DNA of 64,000 nt from Selenomonas dianae (GTDB lineage: Bacteria; Bacillota; Negativicutes; Selenomonadales; Selenomonadaceae). Of this stretch, positions 16,165 through 25,758 are shown one piece after another. How positions within the stretch are numbered: the stretch's first letter is position 1; each line of letters begins with the position of its first letter. The translations under genes were made by a program, and so were the position numbers. The stretch lies in contig NZ_CP128650.1 of the NCBI RefSeq assembly GCF_030644225.1, forward strand, positions 444,001 through 508,000, read 5' to 3'. Under the pieces are notes generated by a model, which worked only from the letters and a program-made list of their open reading frames with translations, had not been told where the DNA came from and did not search any database.

Positions 16165-19100
16165 TTGTTCAAGGGGAACAAATCCAAAAAACTGGCATTC
16201 TTTGCTGCGATGGCACTGGTCGGCGGAGCGTTCGCGCCGTATACCTATGCAGCGGATGTGACAATCGACCCCGCACATCCGCCGGTCAAGAATGTGCCGC
16301 GACCGCTCACCACAGGTGCTGCGGGCGATGTTGGCACAGGCAGCGCGGATGCGTCGGGGAATACGCTCACCATCGAGAACTATGATTATGAGAACAACGC
16401 TGTCTATGGCGGTGCTGCGCTCGGTACAGGAAATGCGGAAGGAAATACACTGACGATCGTGAACTCCAAAGTCCTGGTGGGGTATGGCGGTGTTGCACAG
16501 AACGGCGGCAACGCAAACCGCAACAAGCTCGTATTTCGTTCGGGCGAGGTCGGTGCAACGATGGCGGGCGGCTTTGTTGGCAGCGAGACGGGCAGTGCGG
16601 AGGGGAACTCCGTCACGGTGTATCGCGGAACGACATCGCACATCTACGGCGGATATTCCAAAAAAGCAAAGGCACGTGGGAACGTCCACAAGAATGAAGT
16701 CGTCGTCCACGGGGGAACGATTGACGGCAAGATCAAGGGCGGTGTCATCGACGAAGTCAAATCGACGGGCAACGTGACGGAAAATACGGTTACGATCAAC
16801 GACGGAACGCTCAAGGACGCGGTCTATGGCGGCGCAATTGAAAAAAGCAATTCCACCGGCAGGGTCGAGGGGAATCGCGTTACAATCAACGGTGGAATTA
16901 TTAAAAAGAACATCATCGGGGGTTTTGTGCGCGGTAAAGGAACGCTGACAGGGAACATTGTCACCATTGCGGGCGGCACGATTGAGGGCGAGGTATATGC
17001 CGCATTCTCCTCCGAGAACAGCAGGAGTGTGCTGACGAATAACGTGGTCAACCTCGGCGACGGGGAACATGCTGCGCCAGTGAATGTTTCCAAGTTTGTC
17101 TGGGTGGCGCGTGGAAAATACGGTGCGACCTCGTCCGGCAATACGCTCAATGTCAAGACACGTGCAGAGGCGGACTATGTCGGTGGTTTCGAGAAGCTCA
17201 ATTTCTATTTCAAGGAGGCGATTCAGCCGAAACTCGTCCTGCGCAAGTCGACGGATTTGAAGATAGCGAGCCTGAACGACATCGGGGTCTATGGATCGCC
17301 GCAGACGAAGTCGGGGACGCTGATCGAGAGAGAACGCGGCAAAATTATCATCAAGGACGGCATAAAATCCGCGACAATAACGGGCGATACCGCAGAGATG
17401 ACGCTCCGTCTGGACAGCACGGAGAAGAAACTCGACTATACGCGGCTGATCTTCAAGGGTGCGACGGTCGCTGAGTCCGAAGGAACGGACACATGGGGCG
17501 GACGCTCTGTGATCGGCAATACAACGGCGAAGAACAGTATCACCATCGACAGCGGCACACATACGAACATCTATGGCGGATGGACGAGCGGTTCGGGCTC
17601 GACGGCTGCAGCAGAGCGGCGCGGCAACAGCACGCAGAACAGTGTCACGGTGAATGGCAGTGCAGACGTCAGCGGAACGGTCTACGGCGGCTATACGGGT
17701 GTCGCGGGCGGCAAAGCAGAGCGCAACAGCGTCACCGTCGAGAAAAACCTTGCTGCGTACATCGTCGGCGGTGCGGCCGAAGGGGAAGCATCGGGCAACA
17801 TAGTCACCATTCGGGCGAACGCGGGTGATGTTACGGGCGGCGCATCCACGGGCATGGCATCGGGGAACATTGTCACCCTCGCCAACGCTGCGGTCAGCTC
17901 CGTCACGGGCGGCGCGGGTGCGGCAACGCATAACAATACCGTCAACCTCGCAGGCGGCGCGACCGTCAGCGGCGCAGTCACAGGCGGCACAGCGGCGGAC
18001 GGCACGGGCAACACGCTGAATGTCAAGGGGACGAACAAGGCACGGAACATCGCGGGCTTCCAGAAAGTCAAATTCGATGCCGCCAACGTCACTGCGGGCG
18101 CAGCGATGCTGGAGCTCACGGGCAGCGCGGCGACGACGCTCGACAAGAGCGCTGTCGACGCGACGGGCAGCACCGTCCGCGGCGGTGTGACGCTCCTCAG
18201 GAACGCGAACGGCATCAACCTCACGGGCTATACGGGCGGTGTATTGAAGTCCGAGACGGATGCGACGACGGAGAAGAACATCTCTGTTCATAAGACCGGC
18301 AGTAAGATCACCGACATCCGCTACGAAGGCTGGCAGTTTGCCGGGGTTACATCCCCCGTCTTTGATGGAGCGGATGCCTACGGCGGCATCTCCCGTGCGG
18401 GCAATACGACGACGGAGAACCGCATCACCATTGACAGCGGCACGCATACGAACATCTACGGTGGATGGACGAGCGGTGCGGGCTCGACGGCTGCGGCTGA
18501 GCGGCGCGGCGACAGCACACGAAACAGTGTTGCGATCAGCGGCAGTGCAGCCGTCAGCGGCACGGTCTATGGCGGCTATACGGATGTCACGGGCGGCAAG
18601 GCGACGGACAACACCGTCTCTCTCAGCGATGTGACCGTTACAGGATCGGTTACGGGCGGATATGGTGCGGTGACGAATGATAACACCGTCAGCCTCCGCA
18701 ATGCGAAGGTCACGGGCATGGTCACAGGCGGCACGGCGCATGGTACAGGCAATACTCTCGCTGTTTCCTATGGCACGCGGACGACGGAGATCGGTGACTT
18801 TGACGGTATTCAGAAAATCCGGTTTGACACGGGGTCCGCACCGACGCGCGGCGCACATCCCTTGCTGCGCCTGACGGCGGTGGGGGGCGACAAGAATATC
18901 GCGGGGATGGATCTTGATTTTCACCGCGACGGAGCGGCGAAGAAGTTTGCGCCGGGGGACAAGATTACGCTCATGGAGAATATGAGCGGCAGGGTTACAG
19001 GCAGTGACCATGTGACACTACAGGGAACGGACGGCATCTCACGCAGCTATACGTTTGAGGTCGTGTCCGAGGGGAATGCGCTCGTCGGCACGGTGGCGCA

Positions 19101-20028
19101 GACACGCATGACCGAGCAGTCCAAGTCCCCTGTCGAAACACGTACAGGTGCAAGTGCATTTTTGAACGCCGGCGGAGATTTTGCCGCAGGAGCGGGCATG
19201 GATGCAGCGAAGAAGGAGGCGGCACACGCGGCGGCAACGCCCGGTGCAGCTCCCTACGGACTTTGGGCGGGCACGGGCGCGGGCGCACTTCGTCACAACA
19301 CCGGCTCCCATGTCGATATGAGAGGCTGGAATATCGGTCTCGGTTGGGCGCGTGCGAATGCGCTGCGGACGGGGACGCTGACCTTTGGTCCTCTGATTGA
19401 ATACGGGCGCGGCAGCTACGACTCCTATCTCGACGACGGCACGCACGGCAGCGGCAGGACGAGCTACCTCGGTACGGGGCTCATGGCGAAATACGAAATG
19501 GCGGCGGGCAGGTGGATCGATGGATCGCTGCGCATTGGCAGGACACGGAGCGACTACCGTGGCGTTGCGTCCTATGATACGTCGAACGCCTACTATGCCG
19601 TACACGTCGGCGCAGGTAAGGAGTTCCGTGTCCGCGCGGCGGATACGGTCAGCGCGTATGTGCGCTATGCGTATACACATACGGCGGGGACAACGGCACA
19701 TCTGAGCTCCGGTGAGACGTATGACTTCGATGCGGTGAACTCGCACCGTCTGCGCATCGGCACGCGCTACACACATGGCGCGGCGGCGTACCGTCAGATC
19801 TATGCGGGGCTTGCGTGGGAGTACGAGTTTGACGGCGATGCGCGTGCAGTCGTGCAGGGGGACAGCACCCCGAGCCCGTCGCTTCGGGGCGGCAGTACAC
19901 TCTTTGAGCTTGGCTGGCGCTTTACGCCAAAGGCAAACAGCCGCCTCCGCTGTGATTTGAATCTCACCGGATGGCAGGGCAAACGGCAGGGCGTTACGGG
20001 CGGCCTTTCGATCAACTGGGCGTTCTGA
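16165..20028 (+). CDS. large autotransporter (type V secretion) surface protein
   Basis: A 1287-residue secreted protein. It starts at TTG 16165, fixed by AGGAGGAT at 16151-16158. A signal peptide ends near AYTYA-like residues 26-31. The passenger (about 32-1020) is made of short beta-helix repeats of the type GNTLTI...VYGG, poor in Cys. A 75-residue block is duplicated (codons at 17515-17739 and 18400-18624). From about residue 1028 (APYGLWAGTGAG) a roughly 260-residue autotransporter beta-domain ends in Trp-Ala-Phe, as expected for an outer-membrane barrel recognised by BamA. The passenger is probably an adhesin; no protease motif is seen. It has its own transcription unit. Confidence 0.9.
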   Translation: MFKGNKSKKLAFFAAMALVGGAFAPYTYAADVTIDPAHPPVKNVPRPLTTGAAGDVGTGSADASGNTLTIENYDYENNAVYGGAALGTGNAEGNTLTIVNSKVLVGYGGVAQNGGNANRNKLVFRSGEVGATMAGGFVGSETGSAEGNSVTVYRGTTSHIYGGYSKKAKARGNVHKNEVVVHGGTIDGKIKGGVIDEVKSTGNVTENTVTINDGTLKDAVYGGAIEKSNSTGRVEGNRVTINGGIIKKNIIGGFVRGKGTLTGNIVTIAGGTIEGEVYAAFSSENSRSVLTNNVVNLGDGEHAAPVNVSKFVWVARGKYGATSSGNTLNVKTRAEADYVGGFEKLNFYFKEAIQPKLVLRKSTDLKIASLNDIGVYGSPQTKSGTLIERERGKIIIKDGIKSATITGDTAEMTLRLDSTEKKLDYTRLIFKGATVAESEGTDTWGGRSVIGNTTAKNSITIDSGTHTNIYGGWTSGSGSTAAAERRGNSTQNSVTVNGSADVSGTVYGGYTGVAGGKAERNSVTVEKNLAAYIVGGAAEGEASGNIVTIRANAGDVTGGASTGMASGNIVTLANAAVSSVTGGAGAATHNNTVNLAGGATVSGAVTGGTAADGTGNTLNVKGTNKARNIAGFQKVKFDAANVTAGAAMLELTGSAATTLDKSAVDATGSTVRGGVTLLRNANGINLTGYTGGVLKSETDATTEKNISVHKTGSKITDIRYEGWQFAGVTSPVFDGADAYGGISRAGNTTTENRITIDSGTHTNIYGGWTSGAGSTAAAERRGDSTRNSVAISGSAAVSGTVYGGYTDVTGGKATDNTVSLSDVTVTGSVTGGYGAVTNDNTVSLRNAKVTGMVTGGTAHGTGNTLAVSYGTRTTEIGDFDGIQKIRFDTGSAPTRGAHPLLRLTAVGGDKNIAGMDLDFHRDGAAKKFAPGDKITLMENMSGRVTGSDHVTLQGTDGISRSYTFEVVSEGNALVGTVAQTRMTEQSKSPVETRTGASAFLNAGGDFAAGAGMDAAKKEAAHAAATPGAAPYGLWAGTGAGALRHNTGSHVDMRGWNIGLGWARANALRTGTLTFGPLIEYGRGSYDSYLDDGTHGSGRTSYLGTGLMAKYEMAAGRWIDGSLRIGRTRSDYRGVASYDTSNAYYAVHVGAGKEFRVRAADTVSAYVRYAYTHTAGTTAHLSSGETYDFDAVNSHRLRIGTRYTHGAAAYRQIYAGLAWEYEFDGDARAVVQGDSTPSPSLRGGSTLFELGWRFTPKANSRLRCDLNLTGWQGKRQGVTGGLSINWAF
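17515..17739 (+). repeat. autotransporter internal repeat, unit 1
   Basis: Encodes 75 residues beginning GNTTAKNSITIDSGTHTN. It is nearly the same as unit 2, which begins 885 bases later in the same frame; the shared core includes SGTHTNIYGGWTSG and GSTAAAERRG. Confidence 0.85.
18400..18624 (+). repeat. autotransporter internal repeat, unit 2
   Basis: Second copy of the 75-residue block, beginning GNTTTENRITIDSGTHTN. Substitutions are concentrated outside the conserved YGG turns. Confidence 0.85.
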
Positions 20029-23772: not shown

Positions 23773-23938
23773 AAAGGAATCGCTGATAAAATGAAGTCCG
23801 TCAGATTGGCGTAGATTTTTCGTCCGAACAAGGAGGCAAACCGGACGCATAGCCAAAGCTATGTGGAGGATTTGCCGACACAGTGCGGGCAAAAAAGATG
23901 CGTCAAGATGGCGCGGCTGAATTTATCAGTGCTTCCGT
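23773..23938 (-). repeat. about 165-bp repeat with inverted ends, copy B
   Basis: Same element as at 361-526, in reverse orientation: AAGGAATCGCTGATAAA at one end, and the segment TCTACGCCAATCTGACGGAC is identical to copy A once reversed. Its far end (ACGGAAGCACTGATAAA, minus strand) encodes the last residues and stop codon of the Gx-transporter gene. It separates that gene from fumC. Confidence 0.85.
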
Positions 23939-24406: not shown

Positions 24407-24745
24407 TCACTTTACTTCGATCAGGAGTTTGTGCGGCAGACAGGCGATCACATCGCCTTTTTTTGATGCCTTGCCCGTCTTGACGCAGACGAGGTCGGGG
24501 CAGTCCGCATCGACGACGGCAATGCTTTCATCCTCGATGCGGATCGTGTTCGCCCCGTGCTCATTCGCAATGACGATGTTCTCCGTACCCGTGTGTCCCG
24601 TGAGCGGGATGTCGTAGAGCTGCACATTGTTCTGTGTGATAACGGCATGACGCACGTCACTGTCCGTGTGTGTGAAAAAAAATATGGCACCGATCCCACA
24701 GAGGAGGAGCAGTGCGCCGATGAGGACGAAGTCGTTTTTCTTCAT
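24407..24745 (-). CDS. NusG domain II-containing protein, membrane-anchored
   Basis: The 112-residue protein has one N-terminal membrane helix (about 7-25) and a beta-rich domain with the pattern DADCPDLVCVKTGKASKKGDVIACLPHKLLIEV, typical of the NusG-II family: three cysteines in C-x4-C...C, then a conserved proline. Despite its name it is not the transcription factor. It is expected to be anchored in the membrane and to act with the Gx protein encoded next to it. The function is not known. Confidence 0.78.
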   Translation of the reverse strand: MKKNDFVLIGALLLLCGIGAIFFFTHTDSDVRHAVITQNNVQLYDIPLTGHTGTENIVIANEHGANTIRIEDESIAVVDADCPDLVCVKTGKASKKGDVIACLPHKLLIEVK

Positions 24746-24774
24746 TGATGTTTCCTTTACCTATGTGATATAAT
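24745..24774 (+). promoter_or_regulatory. promoter of the small-peptide gene
   Basis: TTGATG (24745-24750) and a perfect TATAAT (24769-24774) are 18 bases apart. Transcription would begin near 24781, giving a message of about 220 bases ending at the terminator at 24968-25001. It diverges from the NusG-II gene. Confidence 0.7.
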
Positions 24775-24828
24775 CCCCTTGCCACGGCTCTCATCCGGTC
24801 AATCAGGCACGGGAGGGAGGTTGGTGAC

Positions 24829-24918
24829 GTGCACATCTCTGATTTGTTGCTTTCGCTGCTCATCAGTGTTGTCGGGAGTGTTCTTGGCGCACTGATTGTG
24901 CAGAGGCTGAGGAGGTAG
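24829..24918 (+). CDS. 29-residue hydrophobic peptide, candidate Fst-type toxin
   Basis: The GTG at 24829 is 8 bases after GGAGG in a strong purine run (24811-24820). The peptide opens with a short polar segment (HISD), continues with a single membrane helix (LLLSLLISVVGSVLGALIV), and ends QRLRR, so it would insert in the membrane with a basic cytoplasmic tail. Its size and layout match the Fst/Ldr superfamily of type I toxins, although sequence identity is low. The gene has its own promoter, is followed by a bidirectional terminator, and faces an antisense RNA promoter. Toxicity is inferred from architecture only. Confidence 0.6.
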   Translation: MHISDLLLSLLISVVGSVLGALIVQRLRR

Positions 24919-24965
24919 AAGCAGCCTCCGCTGTGGCATCAGCCGGGTGCGTCTCATCAGCGCAC

Positions 24966-25033
24966 AAAAAAGCCTCGGGGTCATCACTCCCCGAGGCTTT
25001 TCTATTTGGTTGGCGCATGCGCACCTCTGATTC
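24966..25033 (-). ncRNA. candidate antitoxin RNA, about 68 nt
   Basis: Transcription from the minus-strand promoter at 25040-25068 would start near 25033 and end at the six T's of the shared terminator (24966-24971). The predicted RNA has no ORF. Its first part is complementary to direct repeats DRa (GGTTGG, 25008-25013) and DRb (GCACCTCTGATT, 25021-25032), which recur at the ribosome site and start codon of the peptide gene (24819-24824 and 24831-24844). Pairing there would block translation, as RNA II does to RNA I in the par locus of pAD1. Confidence 0.6.
24968..25001. terminator. bidirectional terminator shared by toxin mRNA and antisense RNA
   Basis: A perfect 13-bp stem (24968-24980 with 24989-25001) with an 8-base loop, A-run on one side and T-run on the other. 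Confidence 0.9.
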
Positions 25034-25039
25034 ATGATC

Positions 25040-25068
25040 ATTATAGCATTGATAGAAAAGCATTTCAA
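25040..25068 (-). promoter_or_regulatory. antisense RNA promoter
   Basis: On the minus strand TTGAAA (25068-25063) and TATAAT (25045-25040) are exactly 17 bases apart, a near-consensus sigma-70 promoter stronger than the opposing one. Confidence 0.8.
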
Positions 25069-25182: not shown

Positions 25183-25671
25183 TCAGATGCCTTTCCCGAG
25201 TTCGCGCTGCCAGTAGGCAAGGTCGGGTTCGCTGAGCGGCAGATCGATGGTCTGACCGTTGTCGTAGTAGAAGCGGACGCGGATGCCCGTCGCCTTGCGG
25301 ACGGCGGGAAGGCTCGCACGCGGGAGCTCGACGAAGAATTTGTTTTCGTTCTTGTAGGGGTTGTCGGCATCGGGGACGGGATGCGGCGTATATTTGACTG
25401 CCGCCTTCATCTCCCATGCGGCGCCGTCCGTGTAGAGAACGACATCGGGCAGGAGCTTCGCCTCGTCAAAGCGGTAGTCCCACAGCGCGAGGGTTGCCCC
25501 CTCAAGTCGTCCCTCGCCCGTGTAGGATGCCTGAAAGTCGATGCGCGCATACGCGGAGAGGCTGCGTGCCGTGCGATGGTCGATCCGGTAGGTGTAGGAG
25601 AGCCCGAAGATGCCCGTGAGGATGAGGAGCATACCGATGAGGATGAGAAAGTTGCGGAATACGTTTTGCAA
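25183..25671 (-). CDS. membrane-anchored protein of unknown function
   Basis: The 162-residue product starts at TTG 25671, chosen because AAAGGAGG lies just upstream and no ATG in this frame has a site. A membrane helix (about 8-25, FLILIGMLLILTGIFGLSY) anchors a mainly extracytoplasmic domain. This domain has several Tyr/Trp-rich strands and one region, PDADNPYKNENKFFVELPR, that may be a surface loop. I do not recognise a family. It is divergent from the HAD phosphatase gene and sits next to the candidate toxin-antitoxin. Confidence 0.6.
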   Translation of the reverse strand: MQNVFRNFLILIGMLLILTGIFGLSYTYRIDHRTARSLSAYARIDFQASYTGEGRLEGATLALWDYRFDEAKLLPDVVLYTDGAAWEMKAAVKYTPHPVPDADNPYKNENKFFVELPRASLPAVRKATGIRVRFYYDNGQTIDLPLSEPDLAYWQRELGKGI

Positions 25672-25704
25672 GATGCCCCTCCTTTCGATCGTGTTTTCCG
25701 GGCT

Positions 25705-25734
25705 ATTATAACATAGGGGAATGGGATTTGTCAG
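25705..25734 (-). promoter_or_regulatory. promoter of the membrane-anchored protein gene
   Basis: On the minus strand, CTGACA (25734-25729) and TATAAT (25710-25705) with an 18-base spacer. Confidence 0.55.
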
Positions 25735-25758
25735 CATTTTGGGAAACAGGGGGATCAT

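What the first reader, a model, noticed from the sequence alone, without database searches (positions are those of the whole stretch)
24745..25068. Candidate Fst/par-type I toxin-antitoxin locus
A 29-residue membrane peptide has its own promoter and strong ribosome site, a bidirectional terminator after it, and a near-consensus antisense promoter facing it. The predicted RNAs are about 220 and 68 nt, close to RNA I (about 210) and RNA II (about 65) of pAD1 par. Such loci are known from Lactobacillales and Staphylococcus plasmids and chromosomes; I know of none described in Negativicutes. The peptide sequence is only loosely similar to Fst, so architecture carries the argument.
Basis: partly seen in the sequence, partly recalled or inferred. 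Interest (0 to 1): 0.9.

Follow-up and report, generated by a model that had tools for sequence, protein, structure and literature searches.

The report
Fst-style RNA-controlled toxin module in Selenomonas
This short stretch of an oral Selenomonas-type chromosome looks like a real toxin gene kept silent by a matching antisense RNA, one of a large family of such modules whose RNA "address labels" change together from copy to copy, in a bacterial class where I found no earlier description of them.

Summary
A 29-codon membrane-peptide ORF (24829-24918) has its own promoter, a strong Shine-Dalgarno, a 13-bp terminator readable on both strands and an 11-of-12 convergent antisense promoter. Relatives show that this is design. 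Two paralogues in the same genome have different peptides and different repeats. Across 34 distinct modules each toxin start matches its own antisense far better than others (permutation z 20.5). A second address, a loop motif shown three times in the toxin mRNA, also co-varies (z 5.9-7.3). The module is an insertion: 12 of the 14 genus genomes have the empty site. Most likely it is a type I toxin-antitoxin module of par/Fst architecture. The peptide fails the Fst/Ldr sequence definition (no Trp, no P/D/S/TXXXG, below model cut-offs), but intermediates on the same RNA scaffold link it to KWLD peptides that resemble Fst/Ldr and match widely in Negativicutes. Expression and toxicity are untested. 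Verdict: new variant of a known kind.

The parts
24745..24774 (+). toxin promoter: -35 TTGATG, 18-nt spacer, extended -10 TATAAT
   Evidence: promoter at the corresponding place in 39 modules, mean score 9.05 vs 6.95 in shuffles
24781..25003 (+). predicted toxin mRNA (RNA I-like), about 223 nt
   Evidence: promoter and terminator positions; fold z -3.7
24781..24788 (+). GCCACGGC, 5' arm of the helix that closes the 5' end onto 24930-24937
   Evidence: (five core pairs kept in 42-43 of 43 mRNAs)
24791..24795 (+). loop-motif copy 1 (UCAUC) in the 5' leader
24811..24820 (+). Shine-Dalgarno GGGAGGGAGG, predicted to pair with the leader pyrimidine stretch
24819..24844 (+). direct repeat copy 1 (GGTTGG then TGCACATCTCTGATT): target of the antisense RNA, over the translation start
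24829..24918 (+). toxin ORF, GTG start, 29 aa MHISDLLLSLLISVVGSVLGALIVQRLRR, one membrane helix (max 19-residue hydropathy 2.68)
   Evidence: codon-position bias
24930..24937 (+). GCTGTGGC, 3' arm of the 5'-3' helix
24947..24965 (+). pre-terminator hairpin with loop-motif copy 2 (UCAUCA, 24954-24959)
24968..25001 (.). terminator shared by both RNAs, 13-bp stem, loop UCAUCACU (motif copy 3)
   Evidence: (plus strand); minus-strand T run read
24966..25033 (-). predicted antisense RNA (antitoxin, RNA II-like), about 68 nt
25008..25032 (.). direct repeat copy 2 (GGTTGG then TGCGCACCTCTGATT): 5' part of the antisense RNA
25040..25068 (-). antisense promoter, TTGAAA, 17-nt spacer, extended -10 TATAAT
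   Evidence: 39 modules mean score 10.13 vs 6.78 in shuffles

Best explanation
It is a type I toxin-antitoxin module with the par/Fst architecture. A toxin mRNA encodes a 29-residue single-helix membrane peptide. Its leader is folded so that the 5' end is tied to the 3' part of the mRNA and the Shine-Dalgarno is masked. A short convergent antisense RNA shares the terminator. The terminator loops (and probably the two further copies of the same loop motif in the mRNA) make first contact; the 5' tail of the antisense RNA then pairs with the direct repeat over the start codon and blocks translation. The pairing tails are specific to each locus, so several modules can coexist in one cell. The module is a horizontally gained insertion; relatives sit on chromosomes and on a plasmid with phage genes, so its likely role is addiction (maintenance of the DNA that carries it), possibly put to other use on the chromosome. 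SHOWN by sequence: the parts, their conservation, the locus-specific co-variation of both pairing sites, the empty site. INFERRED: transcription, RNA pairing in the cell, RNA stabilities, toxicity, biological role.
For: Parts. Paralogues at 574192+ and 2316055- of the same genome with different peptides and start repeats. Direct repeat: 34 distinct modules (of 51 extracted), mean own-locus score 11.1 vs 6.1 for other loci; 26 of 34 have no better partner; 0 of 20000 permutations reach it, z 20.5. In the window's genome the predicted antisense tails pair with their own toxin start at -41.0, -34.9 and -29.6 kcal/mol and with the others at -14.2 to -20.1. The loop motif co-varies between leader, pre-terminator hairpin and terminator (49 modules, z 7.3, 6.9, 5.9; 0 of 20000 each). 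Five core pairs of the 5'-3' helix are kept in 42-43 of 43 mRNAs. The antisense promoter beats all 50 shuffles in 30 of 39 modules. 34 distinct peptides align without internal gaps; the four most variable positions, residues 2-5, lie inside the repeat. Empty site in 12 of 14 genus genomes, own included; module about 96-97% identical to the Centipeda periodontii copy while flanking genes are 80-83%. A scaffold relative lies on plasmid pSRC3 of Selenomonas ruminantium TAM6421, which carries a phage tape-measure gene.
Against: No expression or toxicity data. The permutation tests ignore relatedness. For the window alone the repeat is modest (2 of 100 shuffles). A cruder duplex test on 39 modules made the own antisense the strongest in only 28 (its fixed window also held untranscribed bases). 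Modules that fail or nearly fail the repeat test: G069a (rank 18 of 34), G008 and G180b (rank 3), G031, G140, G167, G069b and the window itself (rank 2, the window behind its near-identical ortholog G007a); among KWLD modules G118, G180/L173, G133, L184 and L190. The paralogue at 574 kb has weak promoters (antisense reached by 10%, toxin by 42% of shuffles). Partial relics and one disrupted frame exist. No curated family matches above cut-off. tblastn with a close relative finds nothing in the plasmid and phage collections; the one viral scan that ran found nothing.
Confidence: 0.9

Rival explanations
1. The peptide is a true, divergent member of the Fst/Ldr protein superfamily, not a separate toxin family on a par-like chassis.
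For: Intermediates on the same RNA scaffold carry the Trp: MIFVFRVLVELLISVLCDLIERWLGW in the same genus, MHLREFLTSVLASVIGSITIELVKHWLGW (NCBIfam Fst 19.1 of 26 bits, E 8.7e-4). Profile-profile match to the KWLD set, probability 96.7, with the Trp column over Arg26. KWLD peptides reach Fst 21.7 of 26 bits and the C. difficile type I model 32.4 of 60 bits; one finds LdrD in the PDB at E 0.37; a KWLD peptide finds 402 plasmid records at E up to 10, 329 of them Enterococcus.
Against: No hit whose cut-off was shown reaches an Fst cut-off; two KWLD peptides hit the Pfam Ldr model weakly (best E 0.021; cut-off not shown). The KWLD profile finds neither Fst nor Ldr in the PDB at E <= 10. Short hydrophobic helices resemble each other by chance and convergence. 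Two Lactobacillales plasmid peptides (L207, L208) do not match the Fst model either.
Confidence: 0.5
2. A leader peptide or attenuator: the short ORF regulates a neighbouring gene and is not a toxin.
For: Short ORF followed by a terminator.
Against: The downstream gene (25183-25758) runs on the opposite strand. The module is absent from 12 of 14 genus genomes between the same two genes, occurs elsewhere in the same genome, and has a convergent promoter and start-codon repeats that an attenuator does not need.
Confidence: 0.02
3. A mobile non-coding repeat (MITE-like) whose ORF is incidental.
For: Insertion at an empty site; a 161-bp MITE-like repeat with at least 41 genome matches lies beside some modules; relics exist.
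Against: Nearly constant ORF length, fewest differences at second codon positions (105, 55, 173 at positions 1, 2, 3), intact ORF in 16 of 16 scaffolds found in the genus, ORF-linked repeat co-variation.
Confidence: 0.03
4. The module now serves phage defence (abortive infection) or stress response, not addiction.
For: Chromosomal copies without plasmid genes in view; a relative on a plasmid with phage genes.
Against: No direct evidence either way; I did not test linkage to defence genes.
Confidence: 0.25

Closest known systems
par of plasmid pAD1 (Fst; RNA I/RNA II), Enterococcus faecalis
   Same: Convergent promoters, bidirectional terminator, two RNAs of comparable size, direct repeats that cover the translation start, 5'-end helix and Shine-Dalgarno masking, locus-specific repeats allowing coexistence (features from PMC7472228: abstract, introduction, sections 2, 3 and 4 read).
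   Different: Peptide lacks the PXXXG motif and the acidic tail and falls below the Fst models. The terminator-loop motif is present in three mRNA loops; the sections I read mention no such copies for par.
Fst/Ldr superfamily at large (PF13955, PF13940, NF033608)
   Same: Short single-helix peptide under antisense RNA control; intermediates with Trp; sub-threshold scores.
   Different: The window peptide has Arg where the conserved Trp aligns, no P/D/S/TXXXG, and no score above cut-off.
Clostridioides difficile type I toxins (NF047374; e.g. CD0977.1-RCd11, PMC7699646, start of abstract and passages seen)
   Same: One KWLD relative scores E 9e-8, 32.4 bits against this model; convergent, specific antitoxins, some on prophages.
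   Different: Longer model (51 positions); all scores are far below its cut-off of 60 bits.
KWLD modules of Lactobacillales plasmids (L. salivarius pBNS11-37kb, C. maltaromaticum pL21581-1)
   Same: Start-region repeats downstream of the ORF (scores 14.5 and 11, 0 of 100 shuffles).
   Different: Different leader scaffold and KWLD C-terminus; no gene listed under the match in the PLSDB table, which is incomplete.

Membership tests
par/Fst architecture (type I TA) | convergent promoters for toxin mRNA and antisense RNA | tested here: met
   39 modules, (9 of 39 antisense promoters do not beat all 50 shuffles)
par/Fst architecture (type I TA) | shared bidirectional intrinsic terminator | tested here: met
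   stem; plus strand flagged by the scan, minus-strand T run by reading only
par/Fst architecture (type I TA) | direct repeats: toxin start region repeated in the antisense tail | tested here: met
   modules that fail are named in the Against line
par/Fst architecture (type I TA) | helix sequestering the 5' end and masking of the Shine-Dalgarno | tested here: met
   predicted only: consensus fold of 43 mRNAs
par/Fst architecture (type I TA) | both RNAs expressed, toxin mRNA more stable than antitoxin | not testable with these tools
   no transcriptome available
type I toxin | overproduced peptide stops growth, antisense RNA protects | not testable with these tools
   needs a bench test
Fst/Ldr protein superfamily | Trp between the membrane helix and a charged C-terminus | tested here: not met
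   Arg26 aligns with the Trp; the tail RLRR is charged; Trp present in some relatives. The review notes that pAD1 Fst itself has Val there
Fst/Ldr protein superfamily | P/D/S/TXXXG motif in the helix | tested here: not met
   window has I12-S-V-V-G16 and G16-S-V-L-G20; conserved GSxLG instead
Fst/Ldr protein superfamily | score above curated cut-off of PF13955, PF13940 or NF033608 | tested here: not met
   window peptide: no such hit at E <= 10; own genome PF13955 0 over cut-off
Rfam RNA families (known antisense antitoxins) | match above gathering score | tested here: not met
   window: none; permissive mode on the locus and on 18 relative loci: one antitoxin family, ohsC_RNA, at 25.7 of 50 bits in L114

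The most novel reading that the evidence does not exclude
These modules use a two-part, co-evolving RNA address: a locus-specific start-codon repeat plus a loop word (UCAUCA, UAACCA, UGACCA, UUACC, UUCGUCA, CCAUCA and others) displayed three times in the toxin mRNA, so that the antitoxin's terminator loop can dock at three hairpins before blocking translation. The first residues of the toxin vary because they double as the address. This would let one genome hold many mutually orthogonal addiction modules, in a class of bacteria where type I systems have, as far as I found, not been described.
Probability: 0.45. Interest if true: 0.75.

Novelty: new variant of a known kind. Interest (0 to 1): 0.62.

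Why it matters
It would extend par-type type I toxin-antitoxin systems to a class of diderm Bacillota (Negativicutes) as a large family that standard protein models do not name. It also supplies a natural data set (dozens of modules) in which toxin start and antisense tail change in pairs. The three-loop motif is a testable new element of antisense recognition. The window's own genome holds six modules with a start repeat (three of the window's kind, three KWLD, one of these marginal), so the question why chromosomes collect such modules becomes directly testable.

Tried and rejected
Chance assembly of promoter, terminator and ORF: rejected by the paralogues and the co-variation tests. Known RNA family: nothing at gathering score, only sub-threshold hits in permissive mode (real tRNAs in L114 aside). 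Known protein family: only sub-threshold hits (without cut-offs). PDB: one weak LdrD hit, no Fst/Ldr by profile. Plasmid and phage tblastn with a close relative: none. Viral contigs: none. Leader/attenuator and MITE readings set aside (see rivals). Fozo et al. 2010, a main survey of type I systems (known here from a reference list), is not held, so an earlier listing there cannot be excluded. Literature on Negativicutes: searches returned 1, 0, 0, 2 and 1 papers, by title and abstract start none on such a locus; I did not open them. Other searches: 35, 36, 58, 94. PMC10903887 and PMC8309996: passages only.

Rows dropped or weak: of 71 places, 51 were extracted; the rest are mostly weak hits, many in long frames; four fetched stretches (L088, L091, L092, L093) were not analysed. 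One search left out one module cut by a contig end and repeats of the same start region. One search left out G069a, G115, G116 by choice and those skipped (G150a, G156a, G069b). Terminator detection failed for several modules (for example G153, G146a, G156c); these were kept and weaken the loop test. In alignment A2 the G116 peptide was cut from 39 to 29 residues and G069a/b were left out.

Full report
1. Is it there? Yes. The toxin promoter (24745-24774), Shine-Dalgarno (24811-24820), GTG ORF of 29 codons (24829-24918), 13-bp terminator stem (24968-25001) and antisense promoter (25068-25040) are as described. The scan flags the terminator on the plus strand only; the minus-strand run CTTTTTTG was read directly. 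The predicted RNAs are about 223 and 68-70 nt; both fold better than all 200 shuffles. In pAD1 par such repeats (DRa/DRb) let the antisense RNA sequester the start site (PMC7472228).

2. Relatives. The whole-locus DNA finds two paralogues in the same 2.39-Mb genome and matches in 9 of 14 genomes of the genus, own included, named in part as oral Selenomonas and Centipeda periodontii. A peptide profile finds matches at E <= 0.1 in 53 of 189 family genomes; many of the weakest lie inside long frames and look like chance. Of the 71 places listed I extracted 51 as modules. The 34 distinct peptides used (G069a/b left out, G116 cut from 39 to 29 residues) align without internal gaps; apart from G116, 30 are exactly 29 residues and three have 30-33, with core LLIS-x-LGSILG-x-LILQ-x-LG. 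In the class (380 genomes) the profile finds 48 genomes at E <= 0.01; outside the own family only 4, of which one (G355) has the module anatomy.

3. Co-variation of the direct repeat. The repeat differs from module to module but matches within each. For 34 modules with distinct start regions, own-locus scores average 11.1 and cross-locus 6.1; 26 of 34 have no better partner; permutation z 20.5, none of 20000 permutations as high. The closely similar modules G120 and G121 differ in both copies together. In the window's genome each toxin start prefers its own antisense tail by at least 15.1 kcal/mol, and each tail its own start by at least 12.9. A cruder duplex test over 39 modules agreed overall (z -20.5) but ranked the own antisense first in only 28. 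The repeat lies mostly in codons 1-6; residues 2-5 are the most variable of the peptide (entropy 2.3 to 3.1 bits): these residues seem to serve as an address.

4. A second address. The loop of the terminator, the loop of the hairpin just before it and a stretch of the 5' leader carry the same word within most modules, and the word differs between modules: UCAUCA (window), UUACC (paralogue at 2316 kb), UAACCA, UGACCA, UUCGUCA, CCAUCA and others. Own versus permuted: z 7.3, 6.9 and 5.9 for the three comparisons over 49 modules, 0 of 20000 each (first version, 43 modules). Modules without a clear shared word include G115, G175, G120, G121 and those with failed terminator detection. The antisense RNA carries the complement in its terminator loop, so it could kiss any of the three. 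The sections of the review that I read describe initiation at the terminator loops but no extra copies. Relatedness is not modelled, so the z values are upper limits; genomes G000, G005 and G180 each hold modules of two word classes.

5. Leader fold. The consensus fold of 43 mRNAs pairs GCCACG at the 5' end with YGUGGC behind the stop codon (five core pairs kept in 42-43 of 43) and pairs the Shine-Dalgarno with the leader's pyrimidine stretch. These pairs vary little, so this is conservation more than compensatory proof.

6. Coding. Codon-position differences between close pairs in codons 8-29 are 105, 55 and 173. A covariance model of the leader finds 16 scaffolds in 11 of 14 genus genomes (only 150 of 370-562 candidates per genome were scored). 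All 16 are followed by an uninterrupted ORF, 15 of 29 codons and one of 26. Against this stand three partial relics, L024, L025 and L026, and a module in another genus with a disrupted frame, G172.

7. Mobility. Their modules are about 96-97% identical, the flanking genes 83% and 80%, which suggests recent transfer of the segment. A scaffold relative (G143) sits on plasmid pSRC3 of S. ruminantium TAM6421, 1.3 kb from a phage tape-measure gene, with no gene listed under it (PLSDB's gene table is incomplete).

8. Links to Fst. Some relatives on the same scaffold carry a Trp (HWLGW, RWLGW). A profile A3 of Trp-bearing and KWLD relatives gives matches at E <= 0.01 in 145 of 380 class genomes and 33 of 102 genera; not all of these were checked. 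I examined 25 of the 30 loci returned (the other five were seen); 21 of the 25 have a start repeat reached by at most 2% of shuffles. With four from the own genome, 26 distinct modules give z 15.2, 20 of 26 ranked first (dropped: two duplicates, one cut by a contig end). The window's genome holds KWLD modules at 1993872, 813470 and 2093305 (the last marginal, 3% of shuffles), one at 200173 whose repeat failed the automated test, and one at 2101877 whose antisense half is missing. A KWLD peptide also finds 402 plasmid records at E up to 10, mostly Enterococcus (E-values of the 20 listed run from 3e-4 to 0.3), and two Lactobacillales examples have the start repeat. No peptide reached an Fst cut-off (best 21.7 of 26 bits). 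So I file the locus as par-type by architecture and leave superfamily membership of the peptide open (0.5).

9. Mechanism and confidence. Best reading: type I toxin-antitoxin module, 0.9. Transcription, pairing and toxicity are inferred. Role: addiction of mobile DNA most likely; chromosomal function unknown.

Noticed in passing
window 23776-23936; also window about 359-509; genome-wide: A 161-bp MITE-like repeat with terminal inverted repeats (GGAATCGCTGATAAA ... TTTATCAGTGCTTCC); at least 41 matches in the genome (only 40 of 110 candidates were scored).
   Followed up: partly
L184 (genome 2101850-2101936), MITE-like copy from 2101950: A KWLD-type toxin gene (ending CQWLDSCLR) followed after 13 nt by a copy of the MITE-like repeat where the antisense gene should be: a toxin that seems to have lost its antitoxin.
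   Followed up: partly
L024 (G004), L025 (G007), L026 (G007): Partial relics of the module: leader and terminator without the ORF, or only the 3' half; possible solitary antitoxins.
   Followed up: no
G005:C1:312744-313320; G180 (seven scaffold modules); L114 (two modules around a tRNA cluster): Neighbouring modules or several modules with different addresses in one genome, in one case with tRNA genes between them.
   Followed up: no
L207 (L. salivarius pBNS11-37kb), L208 (C. maltaromaticum pL21581-1), L209, L210: KWLD-type modules with strong start-region repeats on Lactobacillales and uncultured-bacterium plasmids, with no gene listed under the match.
   Followed up: partly
window 16165-20028: A large ORF (1287 aa) that looks by eye like an autotransporter; not examined.
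   Followed up: no
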